The translations under genes and the position numbers were made by a program. The notes beneath the pieces were generated by a model, which worked only from the letters and a program-made list of their open reading frames with translations, did no database searches and was not told the origin of the DNA. From Nephrocerus scutellatus (taxonomy: Eukaryota; Arthropoda; Insecta; Diptera; Pipunculidae), in contig OX352761.1 in assembly GCA_947095585.1 (NCBI GenBank), positions 86,680,419-86,744,418 of the forward strand: 64,000 bases of DNA, given 5' to 3'. Every line of letters starts with the position of its first letter. The stretch's first letter is position 1. Below, piece by piece: positions 20,560 through 41,822 of the stretch.

Positions 20560-20780
20560 TGTCAGAATTGTTATTTATAAATTGTGTTTTATGGATATCA
20601 CTTGTTGTTCATTACTTAGATGGCAACACTATTCAGTTTATACTTTATTCAAGTACACATAACAATCTAATAAATCAATCCATCTAACAAAGAGAGCTAA
20701 GAACATGTGTTTTTCATTACTTAGTCTTTAATAATAAATAGTTTGTTAATTAAAATTCATAATTCCACATACAAACGACA
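20560..20780 (+). mobile_element. Copia-type 5' LTR
   Basis: It starts TGTCAGAATTG and ends AAACGACA. It matches the LTR at 37352-37591 except for a 19-bp deletion near its 3' end. It is followed at 20781 by GGTTATGGGACCAGAATCG, which resembles the internal initiator-Met tRNA primer site used by copia elements. The flanks GAAAT (left) and GATGT (after 37591) fit an imperfect 5-bp target duplication inside a reverse-oriented satellite monomer. Confidence 0.85.
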
Positions 20781-20920
20781 GGTTATGGGACCAGAATCGT
20801 ATTTAGGTAATATTTTCAGAAAAAAGTGAAAATAAGACAAACTTTGTGAGGTTATATCCAGCCGTATCCAGCCGTGTGCGAAGTGAAAATTGTAACCGTC
20901 GAGCAAAATTTGTTGAGACG

Positions 20921-21622: not shown

Positions 21623-22484
21623 TCTATTGCCCTGAGCAAAATGGTAAAATAGAACGCGAAAACAGAACTCTTGTAGAAGCTGATCGTACAATCAGAAGCA
21701 GTAAACACTGCCGTTTATATTTTGAACTGCACAGGAACCAGTAGCATTAAGAATCAATCACCACATGAAATTTGGTACAACAAGCGACCGGATATTCTGG
21801 AATTCCATATATTTGGAGAGAAAGTTTACGTGAAATTGCCTGAAAATAAAGTAAAGAAGCTAGACCTGAAAGGGGAAATAGGTTACTTTGTAGGCTACGG
21901 CGATACTATATAATATATAAAAATAAACCCAGAAGAACCGCTGACTTTTCAACAAGCAGTAAATGGTACGAATGCACAAGAGTGGAAACAAGCTATGGAG
22001 GAGGAGATTAATTCCTTAAAAAACAGCAAAGTGTGGGAGCTCGTTGAAGTACCAAAGAACTCGACCATAGTTAAAAATAAGTGGGTTTATAAATAAAAAA
22101 CTTATACGAATGGAAATATACAAAAATTTAGAGCCAGATTAGAAGCCAAAGGCTTCTCTCAGCGAGAAGGAAAGGACTTCAACGAACCTTTAGCCCTGTA
22201 GTAAGGTTCGACTCCATCCGAATATTATTAACAGTGATCGTTCAAGAAAATTTAGTACTCAAACAGTTTGACGTAAAGACTGCTTTATTAAATGGTGATA
22301 TAGAGGAGGTTATATACATGAAGCAGCCAACAGGATTCAACGATGGTACAACAAGAGTATGTAAGCTACTAAAAAGTTTATATGGTTTACGTCAATCGTC
22401 TAGATGTTGGAACCAGAGAATAAAAGTTTTTCTAACAAACTATGGACTCAAACAATCAAAGGCTGGGTGCTTCTTTCTTTACGA
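21610..22484 (+). pseudogene. Copia pol remnant A (integrase end and RT)
   Basis: The sequence is near-identical to 34733-35985 but lacks about 440 bp (the part equal to 35010-35440). It encodes the integrase tail (YCPEQNGKIEREN), a shortened linker and the RT fingers (QFDVKTALLNGDIEEVIYM, then YGLRQSSRCW), spread over three frames with stops. It breaks at 22484, where unrelated minus-strand env sequence begins. It shares several disabling indels with copy B, so both derive from one already defective copy. Confidence 0.85.
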
Positions 22485-22746
22485 ATCTTGTTCATCACTG
22501 TAAGTGCTACAATTCCTGTGATGATTAATATGGTAGTTCCGTATGTAGTGAAACGGTGTACTGTTGATTCGTACTATAGGAGTTCGATTTCCCTAGTGTT
22601 GTTAATATGGAGCTCGGTCATCATTTCCAGAGAGGGGAATCTGCGGGTTTGTTTCTCTTCGGGTGTTAATTGGAGGATTGCGGGGAGTGCATGAAAACTT
22701 GATGCTTCTCTTGAGGTAAACGTTCTATTATTGATACTAATGCTGG
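22485..22746 (-). pseudogene. Errantivirus-type env fragment, C-terminal part
   Basis: On the minus strand this encodes the C-terminal part of an insect errantivirus envelope-like protein. The ectodomain end is followed by a hydrophobic membrane-anchor stretch and a short basic tail near 22490-22560. A TAG stop lies between these parts at about 22574. The fragment is truncated at the copia junction. Its upstream continuation lies at 29951, on the other side of the BEL insertion. This is a broken relic with no possibility of expression as a whole protein. Confidence 0.65.
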
Positions 22747-23363
22747 TGTTCACGCAACACAAAACAAAACATCACAACACTAAAGATGTCTGTTGTTAAC
22801 ACAATTAACCTGAAAGAAAATAGAACTAGAAAATAACTCAAATTAATTTATACTTATCTGTAAATTTGATAATTCCCAATATAAATCCAACCTAAAAACT
22901 AAATTAATACATGTATTAAATTCACTATCATACATTATGTACTATTATACAATACTTATCTTTAATTTTTAGCCAAATTGAACATTCAGCCAGCTAGGAT
23001 TCTATTAATTTTCATAAATGACAATTTAAATTTGGTCACTTTAGTTTTCAATAACAAAAAAAACTTGTTTGTCTTAAAACTTTGACGTTCATTGAAATAC
23101 ATAACAGAACGCCAGAGACACCTAGTATTCACATTTATTTATATCAATACTTTTTGCGATAATAGCCACCTAGAGTGTATATGTACTAATTATATTCTTT
23201 TGTAAGAGGTAGAATTTGCTACTTCCTTCCTCTTCGTAAAACGTCAAGTCATGCGGACATAAAATTATCGTACAATAAAATTTTATTATAAAGTTATTAG
23301 AAAATTTGGATTTTAATATAATAATAAAATTAAAAGACTTTAAAAAAGCTTATAGTCTCATCA
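22747..23363 (+). mobile_element. BEL-Pao 5' LTR
   Basis: It starts TGTTCACGCAAC and ends AGTCTCATCA, 617 bp. It pairs with 29252-29950. The primer-binding site TGGTGTCAGAAGTGGAATC begins two bases later (23365). The target duplication GCTGG lies at 22742-22746 and 29951-29955. Confidence 0.95.
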
Positions 23364-23723
23364 TTGGTGTCAGAAGTGGAATCGTATCCCAAACCAACAC
23401 GCACATTTCGGAATCATTCATAATTCACCTATCATCAGCTCAGCCGTATTTAACCGTATTACTTTATAACTGGAGTACATCAAGTTGGATCTTCGGATAA
23501 CCTTAACAAATACGTAAGGAAAGTAATTTGTGAAATTGGTGAATGCCAATAAAACCATGTTCGGGTAATAAAAATCGAACTCATTTTTCTTTCTTTGACA
23601 AATTGAAATAAGTTTTTTAATCACTATAATCAATAGTCTAAATCGTAATTTAAAATATATTTATTTCAAGTTAGTTCAACACAAGATTTCGGTCAGATTT
23701 TGGCTAATTAAAATTAAATCAAA

Positions 23724-24879
23724 ATGGCTGAAGCTAAAATTAATAAATTACAACTTCAGCGTCAAGTGTATATCGATCAAATGGAGCGGGCGGAAAAGTT
23801 TGTAACCGAAAATGGCGCAGTAGCATCATATCCTTAGCTAGAATGACGGCTAATAAATCTAGACAAAACGTTTGAAAACATTTGTGCTGCTCAAGCTGCT
23901 TTAGAAGTTCTTGGTCCATTAGAAATAGCGAAGAAAACTAGATCAGATTTCGAAGAATTGTATTTTTTGGTAAAGCCAGCTTTGCAAGTGCACATGTGTA
24001 GACTGCAGAAAGAAAAAACGCCCACCGATAGAAAAACTACCGATCAAAGGCACGCGATGTCTAAATTACCTATAATTGAAATTAAACCGTTCTCGGGAGA
24101 TTATACAAAGTGGTTAGAATTTCATGAAGCATTCAATACACTTGTTCACGACAATAAAATGTTAAACGATGTTTCAAGGTTTCAATACCTACGAAATTCA
24201 TTAACAAGTAGTGTATCTCGAGTGATAGACTCACTTGAACTTACTGGTCAGAACTATCACGAGGCTATTAATCTATTATCAGAGCGGTATAACAATAAAA
24301 AACTCATATGCTCGGAACATATTAGATCTATTTTTGCATTAAAGGCAATCACGAAATCATCGGCCAACCAGCTTCGAGAACTTATTGATTGCATCACGCT
24401 CATTAACCTCATTAGGCCGACCCACTCAACAATGGGACGATATTATTGTGTATATTATTTATACAAAAATTGATCCTGAAACTCGCGGTAAATGGGATGA
24501 CGAATCTCCATCTGATCGTTTATGTACATTGGAAGAACTGTTCAAATTTCTAAATCGTCGATGCCAGAATTTAGAAGGTAGTAGTACTATAACGCTAACG
24601 CAAGTACAATCAAAAGGTTCGGTTCAATCAATTCGTCGGCCAGCTACTCAAGGTCAATCTTCATTTGTAACTTCATCAACGTTTAAGTGTCTATACTGTT
24701 TAATGAACAATCACAGGATATATCGATGCCGGAAGTTCTTAAATAGCTCAATTGATGATAGAAATCGGGAAATCGCTAGGCTCAAAATATGTTCCATCTG
24801 TCTAAAATCGGGTCATACAGCGCTCTCGTGCCCATAAAATTCGTCATGTTTTAAATGCAATGCGAAACATCACACACTT
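23724..24879 (+). pseudogene. BEL-Pao gag
   Basis: Gag starts at the ATG at 23724 (MAEAKINKLQLQRQ). It shows the DUF1759-type region with KPFSGDYTKWLEFHEAF at about 24090-24140. Three zinc knuckles follow: CLYCLMNNHRIYRC, CSICLKSGHTALSC and CFKCNAKHHTLLH, between about 24690 and 24890. It is disabled by a TAG near 23836, a frameshift near 24400 and a TAA at 24835-24837. In the family, Gag forms the particle that packages element RNA in the cytoplasm. Confidence 0.9.
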
Positions 24880-25630
24880 TTGCACTTTGACAACGCTCGT
24901 CTTGCCCAAGCTAATATTGAACACGCAAATAATTCTAGTGATGTGAAAAATACTCAAAATGTAAGCAGATCTTCAAACCAAGCCGAATCAGTGTCATTAC
25001 ATACGATATCAAAAAGCAAGAATTATTATAGCTCAAATAATAATGTTTCTAATGGTTATGTTTATCTAGCAACGGCTGTAGTTAAGGTGTTAAAAAATGA
25101 TGGAACAGCAGTTCTTGGGCGAGTATTGTTGGAGTCAGCATCACAGCTAAGTTTTATTACACAATCATTTGAAGCACAACTTAACTTAAAATATGAAAGA
25201 AGTCAAACACCTGTCTGCGGCATCGGGAGTTCAGCAGTAGCAAGCAATTCACGAACATTCATAACGATTCAATCATGCGTCAATTAATTTCCAACTGAAT
25301 TAGAGGTGCACGTATTGCCAACCATATCAGGCAAACAACCGTCAATGAGAATGAATACATCACTGTGGAAAATACCAAGCAATATTCAGCTAGCTGATCC
25401 ACACTTCGACGCTCCTCAGAAGATTGACATGCTATTGACGCTCAATTGTTTTTCAATTTACTTTCGGTGGGCCAAATTAAAATGTCTGACAATCTGCCAA
25501 TATTGCAAAATACCTTATTGGGCTGGGTAATTTCTGGAAGGTCAACAATAAACGCTCAACACACTTACTCTTGTAACGTTGCAACTGTTGATGACGTGGA
25601 AGACCAGTGTTCAAACCTTCACAGAGAACT
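24880..25630 (+). pseudogene. BEL-Pao protease region
   Basis: The frame continues from gag into an aspartic-protease-like segment. The expected LLDSGSQ-type active site reads RVLLESASQLSFIT (about 25118-25160), with Glu in place of the catalytic Asp. A TAA at 25285-25287 and a frameshift near 25445 break the frame. Downstream, the GQIKMSDNLPILQNTLLGW segment fits the BEL protease-RT linker. Confidence 0.8.
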
Positions 25631-25632
25631 TC

Positions 25633-26210
25633 TTTCATATGTACATACGTGTGTACATATGCTTGCATTAAATTCTAATTGCCCATCGACAGCTTTCAGT
25701 TGCTGCAGTCAAAATTCATGTATGTCACACTACATAATTCGTTATGTGATTTATTTCCGCTGTAGGTCATTGCACATTGCGAAATTGATCGCATGTGCAA
25801 CGAACTACAGCAAAAGAAAAACCAAAAAAATGAAATTAGCTTGCAATGCACATTTAGCAATTTAAGCAAAATAATATTATAAAAATCAGCAATAATTAGT
25901 ATTGCCATTTAGCAATGTAAACGAAATAATATTATAAGAATCAGCAAAAATTTAGTATTTAAGAAGAAATATTTTTAATAAAAGACGAGAGAATTATTCA
26001 AGCCATTGGAGTGTTTACTTCTTTCCATTCGCCAGCTAACCAAGTTCAAGTGCTTGTGTTAACCCTATACGTTATCTTGGTGTCATCGCCTTGATAACAA
26101 TTACAACATTTTGATTGGTAAATTCACCTTTCACAAATATTTTTATCCTTGTCCTTGTGCATTCGCTTGGACAAGTCATTCAGCAAACATTTGATTGGTA
26201 AAATCACCTT
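25633..26210. mobile_element. Insertion in BEL pol, possible solo LTR
   Basis: About 580 bp without BEL similarity separates the protease linker from the RT start (NQDTNKILQRFWEIE). TTTCATA occurs at both edges (about 25636 and 26210), a candidate target duplication. Inside are an AATAAA string near 25978 and two direct copies of a TTGATTGGTAAA-TCACCTTTCA block (about 26112 and 26190). Repeats of CAATAATTAGTATTG type lie near 25890-25960. The family is unknown to me. Confidence 0.45.
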
Positions 26211-27644
26211 TCATAAACAACCAGGATACAAACAAAATTCTTCAAAGATTCTGGGAAATCGAAACCTGTGAACCAAACGTAGCCACTCTGACTCCTGAGG
26301 AAGAGAATTGTGAGAAGCACTTCAATGATACAGTTGCCCGAGATTCACAAGGTAAATTAATTGTTTCATTACCATTATTAAAGTCACCGTCGAGTTTAGG
26401 TAATTCCCGTACCATGGCTGAAAAACGTTCCTTCACCTTAGAGGCCCGACTAAGCAAAAATACAGTATTGAAACAGCAGTACAGTCAGTTCTTGATGAAT
26501 ATCAAGCACTGGGCCACGAAGACGATGCTCACTTTCAATATATCCTTTGGCGTAATACGCTGGATGACAAGTTAACAACTTTTCAATTGGAAACTGTTAC
26601 ATATGGCACGGCGTCCGCGCGTTATCTAGCAACAAAGTGCTTACAGCGACTTGCACTAGAGGAAATGAACAATTATCCGCGGGCTAGTGAAGTAATACTT
26701 AGGGACGTATATGTGGATGATGTGCTAACCGGTTCCGAGTCATTGGAACATGCAATTTGTGTAAAAACTCAAACCATCGACATGCTTAGCACAGCTGGAA
26801 TGGAACTAAGGAAATGGTGTTCCAATCACCCAGCTTTACTATCAGATATTCCAGCTGAAAATCGCGAAAAATTACTGAATCTTGATGACGGCGATGCAAT
26901 CAAAACACTACGTTTATTTTGGCAACCTCAATCTGACCATTTTCGTTTCAATGTGAAGCTGTTAGAAAACGCTAACCGTATAACAAAACGTACGGTCATA
27001 GCAGACATCGCAAGAATTTTCGATCCCCTTGGGTTAACCGGACCAGTTATAATACTTGCAAAAATATTCATGCAACAATTGTGGCTATTGAAACAAAAAT
27101 TGGGACGCAGCCTTACCACAAAATCTACATACAAAATGGCACAATTTTAGAACGAGCTTGCAGCTTCTGAACTATTTTCGGATTGATAGATATCTATTTT
27201 CAGATGCAGCAATAAAATCAATCCAGTTGCATGGATACACCGATGCTAGCGAGAAGGCTTATGGATGTGCGATTTAAATACGTAGTGTTAACTCAAACCA
27301 AGCGATCACAGTCAAGTTACTTTGCTCTAAATCAAAGGTAGCACCATCTTAGCACATCTACCACACTGCCCAGACTAGAATTGTATGCAGCACAATTACT
27401 CGCACAAACAATGGAGAAAATTGAACCGATTCTTAATCTAAACATTGAGAAGAAGTTTTATTGGATGGACTCGAAAATTGCGCTCTCTTGGATTGGAGGT
27501 CATCCATCATATTGGAAAACATTCGTTGCTAATCGAGTTGCAAAAATCCAAGAAATCAGCTCAAAGGACGAGTGGAATTACGTTGATTCTAAAAACAATG
27601 CTGCTGATGTCATTTCACGTTGTCATGGCAACGTCTCAAGTTGA
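26195..27644 (+). pseudogene. BEL-Pao reverse transcriptase and RNase H
   Basis: RT begins LQRFWEIE (about 26239) and continues to the YQALGHEDDAHF-like region near 26500. There a deletion of roughly 150 codons removes the RT fingers, joining straight to HFQYILWRNTL. The catalytic YVDDVL motif survives (about 26710), with the GMELRKWCSN and IFDPLGLTGPV motifs. RNase H follows at about 27200-27644 (RLELYAAQLLA, FYWMDSKIALSWI, WNYVDSKNNAADVISR). Stops and frameshifts occur near 27150, 27280 and 27350. Confidence 0.9.
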
Positions 27645-29251
27645 TTTAATGGTCCAGAGTATTTGTTATTGCCGGAAGATTTCTAGAACGTCAAGAGATC
27701 TTGGTTCGAATTGGATAGTCAAAAACGAAAACTCGTGAAATAAGTACTTACGACAACGCAAGATGACAACGAACACTTGCTTCAGCGCATCAAATTTAGA
27801 AACAGCTTTATTTCTTTTCGTAATGTCATGGCGTATATTCTTCGTTTTTTGCACAATACACGAAGGCAGAATCGGAAAACTCGAAAATTTGGAAATCTAA
27901 GTCAAGAAGAGTTGAACTTTGGATTACAAACTATCATAAAATTAGTTCAGAGATTAGAATTTCCGGATGAGCTAGCGCTGTTGGAATCTAACAAAAATCT
28001 CATATAAACAGTTTATCCGTTTTCCTAGACGATGAAAAAGTAATTCGAGTTGGTGGACGACTTCAACTCTCCGAAATTCCTTATAGTTCCAAACATCCAA
28101 TTCTGCATTTCTTTACACTTACCCTCCTTAATTATCTTCATATAAAACATTTACATGCAGGTCCACAGGCTTTACTCGCTGCCGTAAGACAAAATAACTG
28201 GCCACTACAAGGAAGACGACTTGTTCATAAGGTGTTCCGGAGTTGTATTAGATGTTTTAAAACTAGGCCAACCTGCATTCATCAGATAATGGGAAATTTG
28301 CCTCTAGAACGCATTAAATGTGCGCCACCATTTTCTAATGTCGGCGTGCACTATTGTGGTCCAGTTTATGTGCACTACAAAATAAGAAGGAAGGCTCCTA
28401 CCAAGGCATACATATCCGTTTTCGTATGTTTTGCAATTAAGGCTGTGCATCTCGAGTTGGTGACAGAATTAACAACTGCTGCATTCATTGGGGCACTCAA
28501 AAGATTTGTGCCAACAAGAGGATTGTGTTCAAACATATTTTGTCGGAGCCAACTCCAAATTAAATGAGTTATTCATTTTATTCTCTTCGCAGGAACACAA
28601 CGATGCCATCATTAACATGTGTCAAGCAGATGGAATAACGTGGCACTTTGATCCACCTGCGTCTCCGCACTTTGGCGGGTTATACGAAGCAGCGGTGAAA
28701 TCTGCGAAATTTCACCTGAAACGGGTGTATGCAAACTCCTCTTTGACGTTCGAAGAGTTCAACACCGTCATAAAACAAATAGAGGCCGTATTAAATTTGC
28801 GGCCATTAACTCCAAGTTCGTCAAATCCAAATGACTTCACTGCCATTACGCCCGGTCACTTTCTTATTGGCAGGCCATTAAATGAAATTATTGAGCCAAA
28901 TATTGAAGACGAAAAAAAAAGGTGGAGATTCGTTCAACAACTTCACCAGCATTTTTTATCAAGATGGTCAAACGAGTACCTGGCAGAACCAAACCAAGCA
29001 GCATCGCCGGAAGTGGACGTCGAAAGAACGAAATGTTGCGTTTGGAGAATTGATAATTTTGAAGGATGAAAACCTTCCACCACTATAGTGGCGACTTGGG
29101 CGAATCGTTGCTACTCATTGCGGAAATATAAGGGTAGTCACTATCAATACTTCTCAAGGACAGATTAAACGAGCTATATCAAAGATCTGCCCACTCCCGA
29201 TCAGCTATGGTAACAATGAAGAATTGAAAGCACAAGTCTTTGCCGCCTTGA
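27645..29251 (+). pseudogene. BEL-Pao integrase
   Basis: The H2C2 zinc-binding region lies near 28130-28320, followed by the core: ISVFVCFAIKAVHLELV (D-to-A-like change in the usual DLATKAVHLE pattern), a damaged second motif near 28500-28560, then HFDPPASPHFGGLYEAAVKSAK (about 28650-28710) with the glutamate conserved. The C-terminal GHFLIGRPL and LKDENLPPL-W-LGR strings end near 29200. There are frameshifts near 28010, 28500 and 29050. The 3' LTR starts right after the coding end. Confidence 0.85.
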
Positions 29252-29950
29252 TGTTCACGCAACATAAAACAAAACATCACAACACTAAAGATGTCTGTTA
29301 TTGACACAATCAATCAATTTATACTTATCTGTAAATTTGATAATTCCCAATATAAATCCAACCTAAAAACTAAATTAATGCATGTATTAAATTCACTATA
29401 GTACATTATGTACTATTATACAATACTTATCTTTAATGTTTAGCCAGCTAGGATTCTATTAATTTTCATAAATGACAATTTAAATTTGGTCACTTTAATT
29501 ATCAATAACAAAAAAAAATTGTCTTAAAACTTTGACGTTCATTGAAATACATAACAGAACGCCAGAGACATCTAGTATTCACATTTATTTATATCAATAC
29601 TTTTTGCGATAATAGCCACCTAGAGTGTATATGTACTAATAATAGCCGTATTTTTTTTGTGCCGAGGAACAACAACAATTGCACTATCGAATTCCTTCTA
29701 TGGAATTGTGAAAACCTGCTGTTTGGCTGGTTTTGACATTCGAATTCCGAATACGCTCTGCATATAAAATGCAGCTTATATATCTTTTGTAAGAGGTAGA
29801 ATGTGCTACTTCCTTCTTCTTCGTAAAACGTCAAGTCATGCGGACATAAAATTATCATACAATAAAATTTTATTATTAAGTTATTAGAAAATTTGGATTT
29901 TAATATAATAATAAAATTAAAAGACTTTAAAAAAGCTTATAGTCCTATCA
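29252..29950 (+). mobile_element. BEL-Pao 3' LTR
   Basis: It starts TGTTCACGCAAC and ends AGTCCTATCA, 699 bp. It differs from the 5' LTR mainly by a 139-bp MITE insertion (29639-29777) and two small deletions. The right target duplication is GCTGG at 29951-29955. Confidence 0.95.
29639..29777. mobile_element. MITE, family M2, in the BEL 3' LTR
   Basis: The insertion is absent from the 5' LTR of the same provirus. Its ends are inverted: AATAGCCGTATTTT pairs with the reverse complement of AAAATGCAGCTTAT. It is related to the copies at 54161 and 54295, all with GCCGAGGAA, AACAACAATTGCACT and a palindromic GGAATTC-like core. Confidence 0.8.
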
Positions 29951-30137
29951 GCTGGTGCTATGAAATTTGATCAAGAATGTGCCATAGAGATTTTGATGTG
30001 TTGATTCCGTAGATAGGGTTCCATTAAAATCGTTGATCAGTATTATGCCGGCTGATACTTCTTCTATTTCTGGGAGTTGCTGACTATTGACAAAGTTGCA
30101 AGTAGCTTTTGCGCTTTTTAAAATGTTTGGTATACAG
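29951..30137 (-). pseudogene. Errantivirus-type env fragment, middle part
   Basis: This is the minus-strand continuation of 22485-22746, exactly flanked by the BEL target duplication on one side and the Harbinger duplication (CAG, 30135-30137) on the other. It holds an N-glycosylation-like NDFNGT sequence. It is a broken relic. Confidence 0.6.
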
Positions 30138-30458
30138 TGGCCCTATTCTGGTTTTCCCGGGGAATTGGGAATTGGGGAAAAATATTTTGATAATTTACAA
30201 CTACAATAATTCCCAACTTTTTATTCCATATTTCCCCAAAGTGTATTCTGGCAAATTTGGAATTACTTCCAAATTTAGTACATTTAGTACAAATGTTCAC
30301 CATTAATGTCGTTCATATTTGAAAAAAAATACAATTTGCTGTCATATAATTATAAACAATTAAATCTTTATACTCGTTAAATTCGTGTTTAAAAAGTAAA
30401 AATTTAAATTTAATATTTAGAATAAACTTAATATTTATAATCAAGTGTTTTTTTTTCA

Positions 30459-32056
30459 ATGGCAAGACGACTACTTCATCATTTCTATGATGACGAAGAA
30501 GACAAGCGCTATAATTTAAGAATTAGGCGTAAATATTTACGGGATTCATCCAACCCCTTTGAAATACACGAAGCGGAGTTTATCAATATATATAGGATGC
30601 CCCAGGCATTGGTATTTGCGTTGAAAGATGAAATTGAAAGTTTTGTGGAGGTGTCAACTATACCAAAAGAGATTCGAGTACTAGTTGCGCTTGGTTTCTT
30701 GGCGGAAGGTAAGTTACTTTATATAAGGTTAAAGGTTATTTCTATACGTACAGTATAGGAACTTTCCAAAAGAGGGTCGGCATGAACTATCTTAATTGTG
30801 TTTCCCAAAGTGTGGTAAGCCGATGTATAATGGAAATTTGCAGTATCATTGACGAGCATTTAATGCAGGTATACATTAAATTTCTACAAACGCCAGCGGA
30901 AATGAACGATGTCAAACTAGAGTAAGTGTTTCTTTAACATTTAAATACACAACACATCTTTCGGAATTCTAATAACTTTTCCATTTCAGATTCTATGAAA
31001 AGTTCAATCTTCCTGGCGTAATCGGCTGCATTGATTGTACGCACGTCTCCATGTTCAGACCAGCGAAAAGAGTCGAACATGTTTATCTTAACCGACATCA
31101 CTATCATTCGAAGAATGTCCAGTTATTATGTAGCACAAATAACATTAAATTTTTTTTATATATATTCATTTTATATAGATTTTTTATAGATTTGCGATTC
31201 TAATCTCAGGATACTAAATGTGAATGCTTCATATGGAGGGTCAAACCACGATGCCACAATTTGGAAAAAATCATTGATTAAGGCATTTTTACACAACAAG
31301 TACGATGGAAGTTCACTGCAAAATACATATTTGTTAGGTAATTTTTTTATTTATTTTTCAACTTCAATAAATTCAATTACACTTATTTGTTATGTACATT
31401 TTTTATGTGGTTTTTAATTTCAAATTAAATTTTAAATAAACAGGTATACATTGTATACTCATTGCTTTTCATGGATTCATGTTGCTTAAATTAATTCATA
31501 AGAGCTTATTATAATTATTATTCATCTTCTAAATATTCGATGTCATCATATTGTCCACTGTTTAGAACTTGAGGCGAAATAACATTTTGATTGTTGCTGA
31601 AATATAAAGGTTTTATTAAATATTATTAAATTATACGATTATTTTATAATTTTTTTAGGTGATAGCGGCTACCCACTGCAACCGTGGCTCATGACGCCCA
31701 TACAAAATCCATCAAATGAGAGTGAGGAAAGGTACAACTCGAAACATAGAAAAATAAGAAATTGTATAGAGAGACTTAACGGGGTAATTAAGTCGAGGTA
31801 CAGGTGCCTAGCAAAAGACAGATGTCTCAAATATAACCCATATAAATTGGGGCTTATCATAAACACTTGTGCTACACTACACAACTTTCTAAAGCAGCAT
31901 AATTTTCTGGACGACCATGATTTAGTTAAAGGTGAAGAAACGCAATCAGACACTGAAGGCGATGATGACATATTCGCCGATTTAACTGATGAACGATTGT
32001 TGACAGCGGGTCGGGCAGTTAGAAATTCAATTGTGGACACATTTTTTTCTAGCTAA
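30459..32056 (+). CDS. Harbinger (HARBI1-like) transposase, probably one frame defect
   Basis: The proposed exons are 30459..30708, 30759..30921, 30990..about 31128, 31190..31337 and 31659..32056. Most joins have GT-AG ends and keep frame. Nuclease motifs in order are VIGCIDCTHV (first Asp, exon 3), GGSNHDATIW (second Asp, exon 4) and RNCIERLNGVIKSRYRCL (Glu, exon 5), giving a DDE catalytic triad. Exon 5 also has the typical DSGYPLQPWLMTP and LHNFLK strings and an acidic tail. At the third intron the only GT donor (31130) gives the wrong phase for the exon starting at 31190, so this copy probably has a small frame or splice defect there. Intron 4 holds the last exon of the opposite-strand gene. 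By family knowledge the protein cuts element ends and needs the Myb-like partner. Confidence 0.85.
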
Positions 32057-33104
32057 AATAAATTTATATTTTTATAATTCTTTTAATAAACTTACTTTTT
32101 TGACAACAAAAATCTTTCCAAAATTTGGTTCTTTTTTTCCATTGCCGCGGCACGTCGTTCTTGTGCTGCCGCAATACGCTTAATAGCATTTAATTTTTCC
32201 CGTTCTATTTCATAACCTTCTTTTAATAATGCGTCTCTTGTAAAGGCTGATCCTATGATTATATGAAAATATTAAGCAATAATGTATGTAATATAAGGAA
32301 ATGAATATTTAATGTTGTAAAAACCTCTAATGCGTTTAATGTCCGTAGAACAAAACGGCGTTTGGGACGAACTCGGTTCATTCATCCTTGATGGTATATC
32401 TGGATGAGTATTGGACTGTAAATGACAAAAAATTAAAACAATATTTGGAGCAAATGAAATATTAAATGTAAATTAGCCATTATGTACCTGATGTGTTGGT
32501 ATTTGTAAGCCTCCTTCATTATTGAAGGTACCGGTACAGGCCTCCGGGGAAATGATGTCCATAATTTTTTGGTCCAACACATTTAGCTCCGCCGGCCTTC
32601 TCGAGCTGCACTCTAACCCTAACCCTGTTCGGTTGTCGTACTCTTTTATATGAGCCCATTGAGTTCGAGCATATTTACTTACAATAAAATGTAATAAAAG
32701 ACAATTAGTAAATTATATTTACGAATACCTCACTTTATATACTTCATGTCTGTCCACGCTCGTTTCCATTTATCTGGATCCTTATATGCCCCTCCAATGG
32801 CATTCAGTCGTACCGAAATTTCTTTCCACTTTTCTTTATTTGTGTTTTTTGAATCGATCCCATTAAATCTGTGGATTGCAAAGCGATTGTAATTTCATAA
32901 TAATCTATAATGTAAAGAAACGTTATTATAACTACCTATCATTCGCTAAATCTATATCATCCAGCATTATGGTCACCATCATTTCTTTTTGCTCCTTGCT
33001 AACATTTTTACCCTAAAATTAATCATGATAGCTTATTTTATGTATCTTTATATTCAGATTAACACAGAAAATATTTATTGACTTACTCTGTTTGAAGCTG
33101 CCAT
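31518..33104 (-). CDS. Harbinger second protein, Myb/SANT-like DNA-binding, intact frame
   Basis: The proposed CDS is complement(join(31518..31596, 32096..32252, 32325..32415, 32488..32677, 32734..32868, 32936..33012, 33087..33104)), 248 codons. All six introns are GT-AG on the minus strand and every phase matches, with no stop until the end. It starts MAASNR. A Myb/SANT-like trihelix region follows (KEQKEMMVTIMLDDIDLAND, then EKWKEISVRLNAIGGAYKD and KWKRAWTDMK, about residues 10-75). A variable linker comes next, then a basic, charged helix (EREKLNAIKRIAAAQERRAA, about 186-205) and an acidic C terminus. Known Harbinger partners of this kind bind element ends and carry the transposase to the nucleus. 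The 499-bp last intron contains transposase exon 5 on the other strand. Confidence 0.85.
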
Positions 33105-33345
33105 TTTAAAAAAATTTATTTTATTTAAATAGTACCGAACTAATCGAACATTTACCACCAATTCCCCAAAAAATATGCAGGGAAAAATATAAGTCAAAAC
33201 TGCTACAAAATGGAAATATTTTTTCCCCATTCAAAAAAATTCCCAATCGCCAGAATACACTTTGGGAAAAAAAAAATTCCAAACTGCTAGAAACACGTCA
33301 AAAATTCCCAATTCCCAATTCCCCGGGAAAACCATAATAGGGCCA

Positions 33346-33553
33346 CAGGCTGTATTAGTTAAATTTTCAATACCTTGTGGTTTACATATAAACATTGAGT
33401 TACTTGATTGACATGTTCGCTTAAGGCCAGATGTTTCGTTCTTTGACTTCAAAATTGTTTCATACATTAAATCTATTACAATATTATTTCGTTTAATTGG
33501 TTTTAGAATGAGTTTTTCATAATTGTTGGGATTCACTAAAGGTAAGTTAATAA
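33346..33553 (-). pseudogene. Errantivirus-type env fragment, next part
   Basis: The minus-strand env relic resumes after the Harbinger duplication (CAG, 33346-33348) and stays open until the foldback element at 33554. It has several N-x-S/T sites. Removing the Harbinger element and one CAG rejoins it with 29951-30137 in frame, which supports the order of insertion. Confidence 0.6.
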
Positions 33554-33843
33554 TTGCTATATTGCTTTCAACAAAATGAGTTAGGTATTTTTTGTGGTTA
33601 ACGGCTGATTAAAGCAACAGCAAAAACTAACCAAATTTTGGTAAATTTTTTGTTTCATGTATTTGCCAACTTATCCATATATAATTTTTAAAAATCGACT
33701 CTGGTGGTGAGAATTATAAATAAAAATTTGGGTAAATATTTCTTAACCAAAAAATTTTTTTTGGTTAACGCTAACCATTTTCTGGTCTATCCAATGTGTT
33801 TGTTGTTGTAATTTTTATTTTTTTGTTGAAAGCAATATAGCAA
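33554..33843. mobile_element. Small foldback element in env
   Basis: A 290-bp element with perfect 23-bp inverted ends. TTGCTATATTGCTTTCAAC at 33554-33576 is complementary to GTTGAAAGCAATATAGCAA at 33821-33843. The interior has GGTTAACG and AAATTTTTTG-rich inverted words. Env coding sense continues on both sides, so this is an insertion. The target duplication is not clear and the family is unknown. Confidence 0.65.
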
Positions 33844-34095
33844 ATGTAGAGTATTGAAATTGAGTTACTAATAATTTTTACTTTAGCAAAATTTAAGGCT
33901 TATTCTATTGTAATATAAGGTAGATTTTCTTCTTAAATAGTGCTTATGGCTAAGTTTACTTCCTGCTTTGATAGTATGAGAGAGTTAATAATACCCAATT
34001 TAGCCCAATGTATGGCGTAATTTAAATTTTCTAATTCTTCTTTATATATTTTGAGTTTATACTGAATAACAGTTAGGATTTCATAATTGAATACT
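33844..34095 (-). pseudogene. Errantivirus-type env fragment, N-proximal part
   Basis: The minus-strand frame continues the env relic upstream of the foldback element, with two stops. The helical EELENLNYAIHWAKLGII stretch fits the N-proximal region of such proteins. It ends abruptly at the copia pol junction near 34100. Gag, pol and LTRs of the source element are not attached. Confidence 0.55.
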
Positions 34096-34118
34096 TTTTT
34101 TTCTTTTTGAAACTCTAG

Positions 34119-35990
34119 AAGCTAATAGAAGAGTCTGTAAATTCATTAAAGAAGGCAAAACTATAGCTGTAGGTGAGAGACAAGACAAATTATTTGAAAT
34201 GAAAATTAAGATAATGCAAATCAAAAATGGCAAAGAAAGTGCTGATGAATATCAAGCTTGTATTGCTGAGAAAAGTTCCTTTGAAGAATGGCATCAAAAA
34301 TTGGCTCATCAAAACTACACTCAAATTAAAAAGATTTTGAAAAATTATGACATTAATCCAAAAGGAAATGACAAAATAGTCTGTGAGCCTTGCGCATTGA
34401 GTAAAATCCACCGACTACCTTTTCTTCAGCAAAGCAGTACAAAAACTAGTCGCATTGGACAAATAATCCACGCAAATGTGTGTGGACCACTACCAGAAAG
34501 GTCATTCACAGGTGCAAAGTATTTCCTTCTATTGAAGGATGATTACTCACATTACAGAACCGTATATTTCTTGGGTGCAAAATCAGACGTACTGGAGACT
34601 GGAGACTATATAAAGAAAACAGAAAAACATTGCCCCAGAGGAATAGAAATTTTTAGATCTGACAATGGCCTGAAATTTGTCAATCAAGAAGTCACAAAAT
34701 TAATGAAAGAATATGGAATTTCTCACCAAAATTCAGTAGTCTATTGCCCTGAGCAAAATGGTAAAATAGAACGCGAAAACAGAACTGTTGTAGAAGCTGC
34801 TCGTACAATCAGAAGCAGTAAACACTGCCGTTTATATTTTGAACTCCACAGTAACCAGTAGCATTAAGAATCAATCACCACATGAAATTTGGTACAACAA
34901 GCGACCCGATACTCTGGAATTCCATATATTTGGAGAGAAAGTTTACGTGAAATTGCCTGAAAATAAAGTAAAGAAGCTAGACCTGAAAGGGGAAATAGGT
35001 TACTTTGTAGGCGATACTGTAAAAGGTAACAGAGCTTGGATTCCAAAGGAAGATGATATTTTTGTCAGAAAACATATTATCTATACAGGAAAATTAATGG
35101 AATCTACTAAAGAAAATCAAAATCCAAACACTATTGTATCTCCCTGAGGAAGAAAATATACAATTCAAAAGAAAGGAAGAAAAGATGACGAGCAAATTAA
35201 AGAAAATATACAATTCAAAAATAGTCAGGCTGAAAGAAAAGATGACGAGCAAATTGAAGAAAATTTAGAAAATCTTGTTATCTTACCAATTTTCTGATTC
35301 AGAAGAATAAACTGAGAAATTTTGTATGCCAGAAGCCGAAAGGAGTACAAGAATACAACTAAGAGATCGATCCAAACTAAATAAACCTAAGAAATTAGAA
35401 GGCTACGAAGTAGATTTAGATAATGTTATTGCATTATAAACCCAGAAAAAACGCTGACTTTTCAACAAGCAGTAAATGGTACGAATGCACAAGAGTGGAA
35501 ACAAGCAATGGAGGAGGAGATGAATTCCTTAAAAAACCGCAAAGTGTGGGAGCTCGTTGAAGTACCAAAGAACTCGACCATAGTTAAAAATAAGTAGGTT
35601 TATAAATAAAAAACTTATACGAATGGAAATATACAAGAATTTAGAGCCAGATTAGTAGCCAAAGGCTTCTCTCAGCGAGAAGGAATGGACTTCAACGAAA
35701 CCTTTAGCCCTGTAGTAAGGTTCGACTCCATCCGAATATTATTAACAGTGATCGTTCAAGAAAATTTAGTACTCAAACAGTTTGACGTAAAGACTGCTTT
35801 ATTAAATGGTTATATAAAGGAGTTTATATACATGAAGCAGCCAACAGGATTCAACGATGGTACAACAAGAGTATGTAAGCTACTAAAAAGTTTTTATGGT
35901 TTACGTCAATCGTCTAGATGTTGGAACCAAAGAATAAAAGTTTTTCTAACAAACTATGGACTCAAACAATCAAAGGCTGATCCTTGTATA
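34119..35990 (+). pseudogene. Copia pol remnant B (pre-integrase, integrase, first half of RT)
   Basis: The gag-pre-integrase domain has EEWHQKLAHQNY and CEPCALSKIHRLPF (H-C-C zinc site, about 34285-34425). The integrase core reads HANVCGPLPERSF, where the usual first Asp (HxDxCGP) is Asn, then IFRSDNGLKFVN (second Asp) and PEQNGKIERENRT (Glu). A deletion near 34850 shifts frame. The RT part at 35685-35990 contains FDVKTALLNGYIKEFIYM and KADPC and is then split by a 327-bp insertion. Stops occur at 35145, 35440 and 35597. Confidence 0.9.
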
Positions 35991-36317
35991 AGTTAATTTA
36001 TTCAATTTGATTATTTCTAAAAAAATATTTTTCCAGTCAGAGTTTCCACTTAATATTAATATCTACACTACAACTGAATTTTACATGTTAATTTTCTTAA
36101 CAGCTAAATTTCCATTTACAAAATATTGCTGATTCTTGACAATTTAGAAATAATAAAATTGATTTTGTTCGCCAGACGCTGAGTCGACATCCGGTGGTTT
36201 TATTTCAAAAATGTAAAATTGCTTCAGTCAGCACTTGTGCAATACCTACCTTTATATCGCTAGACGTTAACCTCGTTAACTTATATACCTGTTAATCAAA
36301 AATAATCTTATAATACT
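35991..36317 (+). mobile_element. Candidate errantivirus-type solo LTR in copia RT
   Basis: The 327-bp insertion separates KADPC from SIYKDDGLVAG in the copia RT. It begins AGTTAATTTATT and ends ATAATACT. AGT…ACT ends and AT-rich targets (TATA on the left, TTTA on the right) are typical of errantivirus LTRs. An AATAAA signal lies near 36152. The env relic nearby could come from the same family, but this is inference. Confidence 0.45.
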
Positions 36318-36321
36318 TTTA

Positions 36322-37264
36322 GTGAGCATCTACAAAGATGATGGACTAGTAGCTGGAATCGACGAAAAGACAGTGAATGATTTCTTGTGTGTACTTGAGA
36401 AAGAATTTGATATCACTTCAGGCGATGCTGATACTTACCTTGGTTTAAAGATAGAAAGACAAAACGATGGCTCTATTTTCTTAAGTCAAAGTGCCTACAC
36501 AAGAAAAAATTAAATCTTAAAAAATTTAATTTAGAGCAAGCAAATGCTCTTGCAATACCAGCCGATCCACATCAACAGTTGAATGTAAATTTAAATGATA
36601 ATGAGAAGACTGAGTTAACGACTGCTCCCTATAGAGAAGCTGTGGGCAGCTTGTTATATTAGGTACGAGACCTGATATGTCCTTTTCGGTTAGTATGGCT
36701 AGTCGATATATGGAAAAACCAACAAAATTGCATTCGAATGCAGTCAAGAGAATAATGAAGTATATAAAAGGAACTGTTGATTATGGTTTGCACTTTAAGA
36801 AGCAAAAAACATTTTCCTTATGTGGCTACAGTGATGCAGATTTTGCAGGAGATATTAAAACACTCAAATCAACTACAGGATTTATAGTTATTTGGAGTGG
36901 ATGTGTTGTTAGTTGGTGTTCTCAAAGACAGTCTACAGTCGCCACCTTTACCACTTATTCGGAATACATTGCAGCCTTTCAAACAATCAATGAAATAGTT
37001 TATCCTTATCAAAATATTACTACAACTCTCAATATTGACAATCAACGTACACTTGAATTGATTAAAAATCCTGTTCTTCACAAACGAAGTACACATATCG
37101 ACGTACAATATCACTACATCCGAGAACAGTATGACAAGAAAGTTTTTAAACTAAAATACATCAACACCAAAGAACAACCAGCAGGTATCCTCACCAAACC
37201 CTTGGAAGGAAGAATCTTCGAAATTCATCGCAACAGAATATGCTCCAAGTTTGAAGAGGATTAA
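36322..37264 (+). pseudogene. Copia RT second half and RNase H
   Basis: The RT catalytic motif reads IYKDD where the family has YVDD. LGLKIERQNDGSIFLSQSAY follows. A stop at about 36511 and a frameshift near 36660 precede the RNase H region at 36677-37264. That region has GYSDADFAGD, TTGFIVIWSGCVVSW and YINTKEQPAGILTKPL, and ends at a TAA shortly before the 3' LTR. The connection domain is intact enough to assign but not to function. Confidence 0.9.
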
Positions 37265-37351
37265 TAACTTCTGCATACTGTAATTTTTTTTTTAAATTGT
37301 TTGTTCGATTTTGAATAATTTTTATATTCTATATTCCATATTCCATGGGAG

Positions 37352-37591
37352 TGCCAGAATTGTTATTTATAAATTATGTTTTATGGATACAACTTGTTGT
37401 TTATTACAATGATGATGGCAACACTATTCAGTTTATACTTTAATGAAGTACACATAACAATCTAATAAATCAATCCATCTAACAAAAAGAGCTAAGAACA
37501 TGTGTTTTTCATTACTTCGTTTTTAATAATAAATTGTTTGTTAATTAAAACATCTGAAATTATTTACTCATAATTCCACATACAAACGACA
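37352..37591 (+). mobile_element. Copia-type 3' LTR
   Basis: The 240-bp LTR starts TGCCAGAATTG and ends AAACGACA. It matches the LTR at 20560 with scattered substitutions and a 19-bp length difference. A short purine run (CATGGGAG) precedes it. The right flank GATGTGGATTGG aligns with the satellite word GAAATGGCTTGG. Confidence 0.85.
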
Positions 37592-37988
37592 GATGTGGAT
37601 TGGTCCACAAAATTCCAGAACCTATTGGCCCTATCCAAGAATTTCCATGAAACAATTCTTATAGTCACATCTTAGTCCTACATACCGCATTTTATACGAA
37701 TCGCTTTAGAAATGACATTGTCCACAAAATTCCAGACCCTATTGGCCAGATCCCAGATTTTCCATAGGAACATGTCTTATGCTCGCATCTTAGTCCTACA
37801 TTTCAAATTTCATATGAATCGCTTGAGAAATTGCTGAGTCCACAAAACTCCAGACCCTATTGGCCAGATCACAGAATTTCCATAGGAACAAATTTTATAG
37901 TCGCATCTTAGTCCAACGTACAAAATTTCATACGAATCGCTTAAGAAATTGCTTAGTCCACAAAATTCCAGACCCTATTCGCTTTATC
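37592..37988 (-). repeat. Satellite, reverse orientation
   Basis: About 3.4 monomers of the same family as 6303-17079 but inverted (CCACAAAATTCCAGACCCTATTGG, CATAGGAACA, CTTAGTCCTAC, ATACGAATCGCTT). They are more diverged from the big array than its members are from each other. Confidence 0.9.
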
Positions 37989-38975
37989 CAAGAAATCCCA
38001 TCATATAAATAATATCTTAGGAATAAAAACGGTAATTTTGTATTATTTGTATTTGTTATTTTGTTTGGTTTGAAGTCAGAATCATTTGGCTTCTTGGTAA
38101 AATGGCTTCTTCCAGACTACACTACAGTCATTCTTAATGCTTAAAATGAGATCAAACTACCTTCTTGCGCATTGTAGATGTGTGTACCTATTACTGCTGA
38201 AACACAATGGAAGCTACGACCGCTGCTTAAGCCGCTATCCATTGAGGTCGCCCATAAGTGTAACTCATTGTCTGAAAAAATTCGTCTATAATAAAGTCGT
38301 GCACATTTCTCATAATAGTTTGTTCCCGTACTTTTTGTAGTAAAATTCCTAAAAGAACGAATTGACATAAAAGTCGCTCACAGAAAAGACACAAAAAAGT
38401 TGTGGTAAACTTAGTTTAAGTTTAAGAGGAGTGTTACTTGGATGCTCAGAAGCCATGCTCTTATCCCCTGAGCTACGGCGCCCACTTAACTCTTAAATTG
38501 ACCTTAACTCTGCTTAAATTGGGCTACGACTAACCTACTCTCCTAAGGTGGTTAGCCTTGGCTTTACGTTGGATGAATCGTTTTCTTGCTCATATCAGTG
38601 CTGTCATTGGTTGTTTCTACGGAAGCTTTATCTTGTCCAAGATTTGCTCCCTGTTAAGCTTAGATTCAGATTAGTACATTTCCTTATTACATTTTAAATA
38701 TGGAGTTGAATTATATTCTAGCTATCCTAAGTAACATTCATCGTCTTACTATGCTATAATCGTCTTACTATGCTCGTGATCATATCTTCCAGGACCAAAC
38801 ACCTCATTCCTCCTACACACTCCCACAACTTCATAGAGCAATATTTTATTATTCAAAAAGAAAAATGTTAAGTGTCCACTGTTATGTCATTCTTATGTCC
38901 CATGTTAAGTGTCTCATGTTAAATGTCACACTTTTATGCCCCATGTTAAGTGTCTTATGTCAACTGTCCCATGTT
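37989..38975. repeat. Dispersed repeat R, copy 2, left part
   Basis: Near-identical to 5241-6245, beginning CATCATATAAATAATATC. It is split after CCCATGTT (38975) by a LINE, and the remainder is at 41761-41822. Copy 1 shows the uninterrupted site. Confidence 0.85.
38170..38483 (-). mobile_element. Damaged tRNA-derived SINE-like sequence within R copy 2
   Basis: Same structure as 5440-5763. The minus-strand head GGGCGCCGTAGCTCAGGGG starts at 38483, with an A box at 38465-38475 and the B box missing. The intact GGGCGCC start here is closer to the complete SINE at 53606. Confidence 0.55.
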
Positions 38976-39349
38976 CAGCCGGACCGACCACCGACCAGTA
39001 CGGACGCGTTTTTCTTCCGCTTAATATAATTAAATATCAATTCATATTCCCTTACGCAGCAATATAAGCTGGGCTCACCGAGTAGAACAATTTCTCTAAA
39101 ACAATTATCTACGATTACATTAACTTTGATATCTGTTTACTTGCAATTTTCGGTCATTTTCGTATTTCGTAATGAATTAGTGTCTACTTGCAACATTCGG
39201 TCATCGCCCTAAGTTTAATACAAATTACTGATATTTGCCAAATTGCAATTCTCGGTCATCGCCGCTGTTTCGTGTGTTCCACAACGCTTTCGTGACCTAC
39301 TTTTGTTTGATCTTTTGTTACTGACCTTCCCCCATAACCCAGCTTAACA

Positions 39350-40480
39350 ATGTCGCAGCTCTGCGGGTTTTCGAATTGTGCGGTTAAAGATACCAACGCG
39401 GAAATAATCCAGTGCAATTGTCTTTGTGTTAAATCTTTCCACCCCATTTGTGTTAAAGATCTCACAACTAACTTTTTGTTTTTCTGTGACGAGTGCAATA
39501 ACATTTCCCTTTCCCATTTGATGCGTGCTATTAAGTGTATTAATGACTCCATTGCGTCTTTAATGTCGGATAACAAACTGCACTATAAGAAACTACTCTG
39601 TCAACTATCTAAAATCGATGAGTTAAATAAAAGCTTCGATGAGTTCAGTAACACTACAGACCACTCAACTAACCATTTGAATTCTAAACTTAGTGGTTTA
39701 GGCAAGCTACTCGCAAATATCGTTGATGTGTTAAATAACCCCCCTAGTGACCCCGTGAATCAAAATCTTCTATCGCTTAGAAATGACTTATTATCCGCCC
39801 TCGACTCGCGTATCCCCTTAATTAACGAGTCCTTCAAATCGTTCGTTCAGTCCCAATTATCAAAATTCAATGACTCGTTAAAATCCCTTCGCTCCGATTT
39901 GAAAACGCTTCCCCAAAACCCCAGTGTTGATCACTTTTCTTTCTACCAGCAAGCTTACTTCCGCTTTTCCACCCTCTGCGAATCTCTCTATCTAGAATAC
40001 ATCTACAGAATGCAACATAGCCTTATCACTGATCCTAGACGTTTCTACCAATTTATTAACGTCAAAAGAAAGTCCGATGGCTTCCTGTCCACTCTAAAAC
40101 TAAACAACACTTCATCTGCAGACCCTAAAGTAATAACCAACCTCTTTGCCACCTATTTCAGCCAATCATTTAGTGACCACCCTTACGAACCGGCACTTGA
40201 CTATTTTAACTACCTGAATAATGACCCTCAAACCTCTCTTGTCTCTGTCGACATAAAGACTGATATAGTGCGCGAAAAGATTAATCGTCTCAAGGATGAC
40301 TTTTCCCCCGGTCCCGATGGTGTGCCCGCCATATTCTTAAAAAAATGTGTAAACGCTATAAGTCAGCCCCTTACGACATTATTTCGACTCTCACTCTCCC
40401 AAGCCATTTTCCCAAAATTATGGAAGGACTCCTTTATTTTCCGTATTCATAAAAAAGTTAGTAAAAGCACGGTTTCTTAA
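39350..40480 (+). pseudogene. ORF1-RT in-frame fusion created by deletion (LINE A)
   Basis: A single 376-codon frame starts at ATG 39350. Residues about 1-50 form a PHD-like Cys/His cluster (CGF-x2-C, CNCLC, HPIC, CDEC). A Ser/Asn-rich region follows to about 200. From about residue 205 the sequence is the pre-RT and RT fingers of the polymerase (INRLKDDFSPGPDGVPAIF at about 310-328). The AP endonuclease that should lie between is missing, so an in-frame deletion fused ORF1 to RT. The frame ends at 40480, with RT continuing in other frames. PHD-type ORF1 proteins are known from CR1-group LINEs. Confidence 0.8.
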
Positions 40481-40489
40481 AGGGCAGGT

Positions 40490-41614
40490 CCACTACGACT
40501 TACCTCACCGAATTTGTCTCTAAAAATCTCAAGCCTTAGAGGATAGTAAGGAAAAGGATGTCATCACTACCAACTTCAGCAAGGCTTTTGATAAAATATG
40601 CCACCAAACCATTTACCTTAAACTTAAAGCCCTCGGATTTCCACCCTTTTTCATTTCATGGCTGAAATCGTACCTCGAGAAATGCCAGTACAGGGTTCTC
40701 TTCAGATTCTCAATCTCAGACCCCATTAACTCCACTTCAGGTGTCCCAAAAGGCAGTCATCTCGGTCCATTGATCTTTGTCCTAACAATAAACGATGTTG
40801 GTCACATCATAAAAGATTCAGATCTGCACATTTATGCGGATGATATGAAAATAATTAAGGTAATATCTACCCCAACGATTCTCTATTACTTCAAAACGAC
40901 CTTAACTCATTCTACACCTGGTGCTACAAAAACTTCTTAGAACTTAATGTTGGTAAATGTCAATCCATTACGTTCTCCCGCAAGCAAATTCCCCCACCCT
41001 TCAGAACCTATTACTTTCGGAACAATCCAGTTCCTTCAGTCTCTTCTATATGCGATCTGGGTATAATCTGTGACAGGGAGCTCAACTTCCGTTCCCATAA
41101 AACGATGGTCCAAAGAATTTTCTAACCCTTACGTTACTAAATCCCATTACATTACCTTTGTCAGAAAACAGCTTGAATACGCCAGCCAAGTCTGGTCTCC
41201 ATTTCACGACACCCACTTCATTAATTTGAAGCTGTGCAGCGCAGGTTTATCCGTTTTGCATTACGCGGTCTCCCATGGGCCGACAACTATATCCTACCCC
41301 CCTACGAAAATAGGCTAAAATTGATTAACTTGCAAACCCTTGTAAAACGTCGCGAAGTTGCTGACATACTCTTCATACACCAACTATTATTTGGAACAAT
41401 CGATTCTCCCGCACTATTAGAAATGATCTCCCTTCACACTAACCCACGTAGCCTTAGATCTGTTCCGCTCTTTTGTCTCCCTCACCACCGCACCAACTAC
41501 GGCTATTTTGAACCAATGTCCAGAATGCTGCGAATGGCTAACAAGGCACAGAACAACTTTGATTTCCGTTCAAGTATATCCTCCCTTCGAAATTCCCTTT
41601 ATAACCCCCCTTGA
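40490..41614 (+). pseudogene. RT palm and C-terminal domain of LINE A
   Basis: After a short gap, RT continues: GRSTTTYLTEFV, then motif A as TNFSKAFDK (first catalytic Asp is Asn), GVPKGSHLGPLIF (usual Gln is Lys) and a catalytic HIYADDMK (about 40830). Frame changes occur near 40870 and 41100. The C-terminal domain at 41234-41614 (RRFIRFALRGLPW, NLQTLVKRREVADILF, HHRTNYGYFEPMSRM) is open and ends before the 3' UTR. The enzyme is inactive. Confidence 0.85.
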
Positions 41615-41760
41615 CATTTCTTCCCTTTAAGTTAGGTATTATTATTAAGTAGTATTAAAGAAAAAAATATATAAAAGTCCAGTGGGCCCTCGGGCCCGCC
41701 CGTTGAAAAAAAAAAAATAGGTTAAGTTAAGTTAAGCTTGTATTAAGCAAATAAATAAAT

Positions 41761-41822
41761 AAATGTCAAACTTATACCTTTATTTTATGCCTCGTTATCT
41801 ATACTTATATTTTATATGTTCT
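41761..41822. repeat. Dispersed repeat R, copy 2, right part
   Basis: AAATGTCAAACTTATACC to TATATGTT continues R after the LINE and leads straight into forward-oriented satellite, exactly as at 6303. Confidence 0.85.

What the first reader, a model, noticed from the sequence alone, without database searches (positions are those of the whole stretch)
30138..33345. Harbinger transposon whose two genes interleave exons on opposite strands
The plus-strand transposase (5 exons) and minus-strand Myb/SANT-like gene (7 exons) overlap tail to tail. The last minus exon (31518-31596) sits in transposase intron 4 (31338-31658). Transposase exon 5 (31659-32056) sits in the last minus intron (32095-31597). 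All six minus-strand introns are GT-AG and the 248-codon frame is intact, so the arrangement looks functional and recent. Interlocked antisense exons in a 3.2-kb transposon would force the two transcripts to be complementary over real exons, with possible double-stranded RNA and self-regulation.
Basis: partly seen in the sequence, partly recalled or inferred. Interest (0 to 1): 0.75.

Follow-up and report, generated by a model that had tools for sequence, protein, structure and literature searches.

The report
Fly-type Harbinger transposon, possibly interlocked genes
A young two-gene DNA transposon in which the last exon of one gene may, but is not proven to, lie inside an intron of the other gene on the opposite strand; if real, it lets two genes share one stretch of DNA without their finished messages pairing.

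Summary
The element is real: 30138-33345, 39-bp inverted ends (38/39 identical), CAG target duplications, a DDE transposase gene (+) and a Myb/SANT gene (-). Four other near-full-length copies in the genome differ by about 1% or less in aligned bases; every end that can be read carries a CWG duplication, which fits the NuwaI group of the PHIS/Harbinger superfamily better than classical Harbinger (TWA). The seven minus-strand exons and the interlock exist as drawn. However: (1) this copy's transposase has no GT donor at intron 3, while 3 of 3 other copies covering the site do, so it is probably broken; (2) its Myb gene lacks 39 bp that the other four have; (3) the interlock rests on one predicted exon. 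Its donor overlaps an in-frame TAA, so the gene could simply end 35 nt from the transposase stop, tail to tail, as in six distant relatives I could read. Splice-site strength, an intron of 321 nt against 50-64 in three relatives, and some shuffles favour the exon modestly. (4) The dsRNA claim fails on geometry: interlocked exons face introns, and predicted poly(A) sites leave at most about 25 nt of mature overlap per side. Interlock about 50% likely; RNA is needed.

The parts
30138..30176 (.). left terminal inverted repeat, 39 bp; TSD CAG at 30135-30137
   Evidence: 38/39 identical to right end; TIR pattern occurs twice in the window, 0.01 expected
33307..33345 (.). right terminal inverted repeat; TSD CAG at 33346-33348
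   Evidence: CWG at 5 of 5 left and 4 of 4 readable right ends of five copies (the right end of L011 is lost)
30459..30708 (+). transposase exon 1
   Evidence: ORF and donor GTAAGT
30759..30921 (+). transposase exon 2
   Evidence: frame and homology
30990..31125 (+). transposase exon 3; its donor (31126) lacks GT in this copy
31190..31337 (+). transposase exon 4
   Evidence: homology; donor GTAATT
31338..31658 (+). transposase intron 4, 321 nt, holding putative minus exon 7
   Evidence: intron at the same place 50, 59, 64 nt in L001, L040, L041 (counted by eye)
31659..32056 (+). transposase exon 5 with stop; AATAAA at 32057 and 32085
33087..33104 (-). Myb/SANT gene exon 1
32936..33012 (-). Myb exon 2
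32734..32868 (-). Myb exon 3 (most of the Myb domain)
32488..32677 (-). Myb exon 4
32325..32415 (-). Myb exon 5; lacks 39 bp (13 codons) present in the four other near-full copies
32096..32252 (-). Myb exon 6 (coiled-coil-like by eye); reading on gives an in-frame TAA at 32094-32092 inside the donor
31518..31596 (-). putative Myb exon 7 (26-codon tail), the interlock; AATAAA on minus at 31355 and 31351

Best explanation
A young, low-copy cut-and-paste transposon of the NuwaI type (PHIS/Harbinger superfamily) with two convergent genes. Shown: the ends, the CWG target duplications, both protein domains, and five near-full copies about 1% or less apart. Inferred from known Harbinger elements: the Myb protein binds subterminal repeats (GGGAATT is the candidate) and brings the transposase to the ends. 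Proposed for the overlap: the Myb transcript can end in two ways, at the TAA inside its last donor, or by splicing 500 nt on to exon 7, which with its own poly(A) signals sits in the transposase's long intron 4; the transposase's last exon and poly(A) signals sit in the Myb gene's last intron. The two mature mRNAs then barely overlap, so this is compact packing rather than a dsRNA trap. The copy in the window is probably not autonomous, since its transposase intron 3 has no GT donor.
For: Donor AAA|GTAAGT ranks 1 of 159 minus-strand GT; acceptor 1 of 29 AG in the interval, though 11 of 141 in the element. Exon 7 is 30% GC, flanks 19% and 11%. Intron-4-only shuffles give such an exon in 4 of 2000, none with GC of 0.30 or more. 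Intron 4 is 321 nt against 50, 59 and 64 nt at the same place in L001, L040 and L041. AATAAA follows both last exons at fitting places: 32057 and 32085 on plus, 31355 and 31351 on minus. Acceptor and exon 7 are identical in 5 of 5 copies, the donor GT is kept in 4 of 5 (L013 has GG). TSD, TIR, domains.
Against: No RNA evidence. Six distant relatives with a readable layout are plain tail-to-tail (L001, L002, L039-L042). Whole-interval shuffles give a comparable exon in 219 of 2000, 127 of them with GC of 0.30 or more, and 6 of 13 [CT]AG sites open 20 codons or more. The exon-7 codon score is weak: 2.9 bits, while its three antisense frames score 3.5-6.3 (stops skipped). The invariance of exon 7 proves nothing: 436 of 3003 windows of 104 columns are invariant too. 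No homologue of the Myb protein was found in the protein collection, so the tail could not be compared there.
Confidence: 0.5

Rival explanations
1. Plain tail-to-tail genes: the Myb gene ends at the TAA at 32094-32092, 35 nt from the transposase stop, and the AT-rich spacer is a two-way poly(A) region. Exon 7 is a chance frame in a long intron.
For: Same layout in relatives: gaps between stops 41 nt (L001) and 38 (L002), 25 (L040) and 95 (L041; counted), roughly 140 (L039) and 200 (L042) by ORF limits. The spacer carries AATAAA on plus and ATTAAA on minus at 32087. By eye, the minus proteins of L001, L039, L040 and L042 also end in a coiled-coil-like stretch. Whole-interval shuffles give such an exon in 219 of 2000.
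Against: The strongest minus-strand donor of the whole element sits exactly there; intron 4 is five to six times longer than in three relatives and has a GC-richer open stretch and minus AATAAA sites.
Confidence: 0.42
2. Decayed copy: the interlock is a by-product of a dead element and neither gene is expressed as drawn.
For: No intron-3 donor and 39 bp missing from the Myb gene in the window copy; the element lies among nested retrotransposons, with satellite arrays on both sides.
Against: The interlock parts are shared by other copies, of which L011 and L012 have an open transposase CDS and L012 and L014 an open 261-codon Myb CDS when read at the window's exon borders. L011 has one stop in its Myb CDS, and L013 and L014 have broken transposase CDS.
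Confidence: 0.08

Closest known systems
NuwaI group of the PHIS superfamily (Han et al. 2015, PMC4482050; outline and sections 5, 7, 11 read)
   Same: CWG target duplications, TIR of 39 bp (12-61 described), DDE transposase plus separate Myb/SANT gene
   Different: TIR begins TGG rather than the usual GGG; 3.2 kb against a mean of about 4.5 kb; interlock not described in the sections read
Classical PIF/Harbinger
   Same: PF13359 transposase and Myb/SANT partner
   Different: target duplication is CWG, not TWA
HARBI1-like transposases of insects (best score 42% identity over 97%; highest identity in the 120 listed 48% over part; named ones include Sitophilus, Musca, Episyrphus)
   Same: same DDE domain; two listed proteins read through what looks like an intron at the place of intron 3
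   Different: none of the 120 listed exceeds 48% identity
Opposite-strand overlapping genes of human and mouse (PMC2335118, passages only)
   Same: most opposite-strand pairs there overlap without exon-exon overlap
   Different: here inside a 3.2-kb transposon and reciprocal at the last introns, if real

Membership tests
NuwaI (PHIS superfamily) | 5'-CWG-3' target site duplication | tested here: met
   CAG, CTG, CAG, CAG, CTG at 5 of 5 left ends; the same triplet at 4 of 4 readable right ends. The empty site was looked for only inside the window, and none was found
NuwaI (PHIS superfamily) | DDE transposase plus separate Myb/SANT protein | tested here: met
   PF13359 and PF13873
NuwaI (PHIS superfamily) | TIR 12-61 bp | tested here: met
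   39 bp
NuwaI (PHIS superfamily) | TIR usually begins GGG | tested here: not met
   begins TGG; the paper says usually, so this is not exclusive
Classical PIF/Harbinger | TWA target site duplication | tested here: not met
   CWG at every readable end of five copies
PHIS superfamily | transposase alignable over the catalytic region | tested here: met
   222 relatives at E <= 0.01, best 1.1e-80; D153, D201, E267 invariant in a 21-row alignment (numbering of the 361-residue reading; which residues are catalytic is recalled)
Interlocked (reciprocal exon-in-intron) gene pair | both junctions used in RNA | not testable with these tools
   no RNA data
Interlocked (reciprocal exon-in-intron) gene pair | interlock present in related elements | tested here: not met
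   L001, L002, L039-L042 are tail-to-tail; the transposase intron at this place is 50-64 nt (L001, L040, L041) or absent (L002, L039, L042). Distant relatives only; close copies all share the interlock parts

The most novel reading that the evidence does not exclude
This transposon family has evolved a reciprocal interlock: each gene's last exon and poly(A) signals sit in the other gene's last intron, and a stop codon inside the Myb donor makes splicing to exon 7 a switch between a short and a tailed Myb protein, a switch that transposase transcription through the same DNA could influence.
Probability: 0.3. Interest if true: 0.6.

Novelty: new member of a known kind. Interest (0 to 1): 0.35.

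Why it matters
If RNA confirms the interlock, it would be a compact way to fit two spliced convergent genes into 3.2 kb without complementary mRNAs, and a way for one gene's transcription to affect the other's last splice. It would also mark a host with a CWG-type Harbinger that still has near-identical copies. If not, it is an ordinary tail-to-tail Harbinger and a caution about gene models that hang on one predicted exon.

Tried and rejected
Rejected: complementarity of the mature mRNAs over real exons (predicted 3' ends 32072-32120 on plus and 31316-31340 on minus, if cleavage is 10-30 nt after the hexamers, leave at most about 25 nt each). Rejected: an alternative in-frame GT donor at 31117 for intron 3 (poor score; it would drop three residues that no covered relative lacks). 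Rejected as evidence: invariance of exon 7 among copies.

Led nowhere: Myb homologues in the protein collection; viral contigs by transposase, TIR and Myb; phage records; TIR in prokaryote contigs; Rfam at gathering scores; solved structures (no convincing match); papers on interlocked genes in Harbinger (searches showed 20 each of 180, 388, 75 and 158 papers, with no title or abstract start on it; one search found 1 and none). Structure prediction was not run, because the spliced proteins are not read letter for letter from the DNA. Older relics in the genome (L018-L022) do not keep the exon-7 region; L019 keeps the donor with its stop, L020 loses similarity inside intron 4.

Full report
What is there. 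The element runs from 30138 to 33345 with 39-bp inverted ends (38 of 39 identical) and CAG on both sides. The TIR pattern occurs twice in the window against 0.01 expected. The plus strand encodes a DDE transposase (PF13359, 3.3e-29), the minus strand a Myb/SANT protein (PF13873, 5.5e-11).

Other copies. The window lies in a genome of 613 Mb in 9 contigs, which the tool does not name. The element query gave 42 matched stretches there, which include the window itself and short pieces of the end repeats. Five copies are near full length: the window, L011, L012 (127 bp missing near the left end), L013 (about 520 bp missing near the right end) and L014 (about 280 bp missing); aligned bases differ by 0.6 to 1.0% between pairs. 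The other matches are fragments or older relics. Left ends are flanked by CAG, CTG, CAG, CAG, CTG, and the right ends repeat the triplet in 4 of 4 copies that keep that end. Han et al. (PMC4482050; outline and sections 5, 7, 11 read) define NuwaI by CWG duplications and PIF/Harbinger by TWA, and list NuwaI from 12 bony fish, one beetle, one crustacean, one mollusc and one anthozoan. My guess that the host is a calyptrate fly rests only on contig sizes (five of 95-142 Mb and one of 27 Mb seen) and is weak.

The transposase of this copy is probably broken. The intron 3 that relatives imply should start at 31126, after the codons for VQL or its like; the window reads TT there. Of the 120 best relatives (222 passed E 0.01), 118 cover the junction; 114 have exactly three residues there, 4 have more (two of these look like a retained intron), none fewer. 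L011, L012 and L013 have GT at the site, L014 lacks the region, and the relic L020 has GT too. The window's Myb gene also lacks 39 bp, in frame, that all four other copies have; that this is a loss in the window copy is inferred. So 'intact' holds for the minus frame alone.

Is the interlock real? Everything depends on minus exon 7. For it: its donor AAA|GTAAGT scores highest of 159 minus-strand GT sites under a matrix from the element's 8 confident introns, and its acceptor is best of 29 AG between 31338 and 32055 (11 of 141 in the whole element). The exon is 30% GC in flanks of 19% and 11%. Shuffling intron 4 alone gives a comparable exon in 4 of 2000 trials, none with GC of 0.30 or more. 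Intron 4 is 321 nt, while the intron at the same place is 50 nt in L001, 59 in L040 and 64 in L041 (sequences, counted by eye). Against it: shuffling the whole interval gives a comparable exon in 219 of 2000 trials (127 with GC of 0.30 or more), and 6 of 13 [CT]AG sites open 20 or more codons, one of them (31808) with a richer pyrimidine tract. The codon score is only 2.9 bits and its antisense frames score 3.5 to 6.3; of 20,000 shuffles of exon 7, 10.5% stay open and 4.1% of those score as high. Identity across copies says little at 1% divergence: 436 of 3003 windows of 104 columns are invariant. No Myb homologue was found by protein search.

The alternative. The donor G|TAAGT contains an in-frame TAA (32094-32092). 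If the intron is not spliced, the Myb gene ends 35 nt from the transposase stop, with AATAAA for plus at 32057 and 32085 and ATTAAA for minus at 32087. This is how related elements look. Stop-to-stop gaps are 41 nt in L001 and 38 nt in L002 (two eukaryotic contigs filed under bacterial bins, 29-32% identical), 25 nt in L040 (counted from the stop that aligns with the family's end; this copy has an earlier stop too), 95 nt in L041, and roughly 140 and 200 nt in L039 and L042 by ORF limits. The minus partner is a Myb protein by Pfam in L001 (4.5e-20), L039 (2.4e-10) and L041 (1.5e-7); in L042 the piece tested stays below Pfam's cut-off (0.0095) and in L040 it matched nothing, but both match the window's Myb protein by tblastn; in L002 no Myb domain was found, so that partner is taken from position and memory only. 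L038 is the same family as L039 (98%), has a Myb domain and a shorter minus ORF; I do not count it apart. L040 and L042 are themselves decayed (stops in frame). Of the other Myb loci fetched, L033, L035, L036 and L043 showed no transposase in the stretch held, L037 only a 31-residue piece, and L034 is internally deleted.

Geometry and dsRNA. If the interlock is used, minus exon 7 and its poly(A) signals (31355, 31351) lie in transposase intron 4, and transposase exon 5 with its poly(A) signals lies in Myb intron 6 or at its edge. Cleavage 10-30 nt after the hexamers would give 3' ends at 32072-32120 (plus) and 31316-31340 (minus), so finished mRNAs would share at most about 25 nt at each side; only pre-mRNAs would be complementary, over roughly 0.75 kb. 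The claim that the interlock forces exonic complementarity is therefore wrong. The plain tail-to-tail model could give somewhat more mature overlap, in the 3' UTRs.

How it most likely works. [quoted passage not shown] Here GGGAATT occurs 8 times in the element, all within 200 bp of an end, out of 20 in the window, a candidate binding site. The rest is inference.

Verdict. Interlock about 50%, plain tail-to-tail about 42%, decay by-product about 8%. As a transposon it is a new member of a known kind; an interlock confirmed by RNA would make it a new variant. That I found no such layout in print rests on the listings (20 shown of each), and on term searches inside PMC9179366, PMC2335118, PMC2891614 and PMC2330155, the last two without any occurrence of the terms.

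Noticed in passing
window 20560-37592: The element sits inside what looks like a copia-type retrotransposon (gag at 20924, integrase at 34094, LTR-like repeats 20560-20781 and 37352-37592), next to a nested Pao/BEL-type element with LTR-like repeats 22744-23363 and 29249-29950.
   Followed up: partly
window 6305-17080 and 37603-52421: Large arrays of a 117/118-bp satellite on both sides, with opposite orientation.
   Followed up: no
window 30138-30337 and 33146-33345: GGGAATT occurs 8 times in the element, all within 200 bp of its ends; candidate Myb binding sites.
   Followed up: partly
window 32336-32337: Place where the window copy lacks 39 bp of the Myb gene that the four other near-full copies have.
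   Followed up: yes
L001, L002: Harbinger-like elements with introns or eukaryote-type partners on contigs filed under Enterococcus and Bacteroidetes bins, presumably contamination.
   Followed up: partly
L034: Transposase start exons directly facing a Myb gene, apparently an internally deleted relative in the same genome.
   Followed up: no
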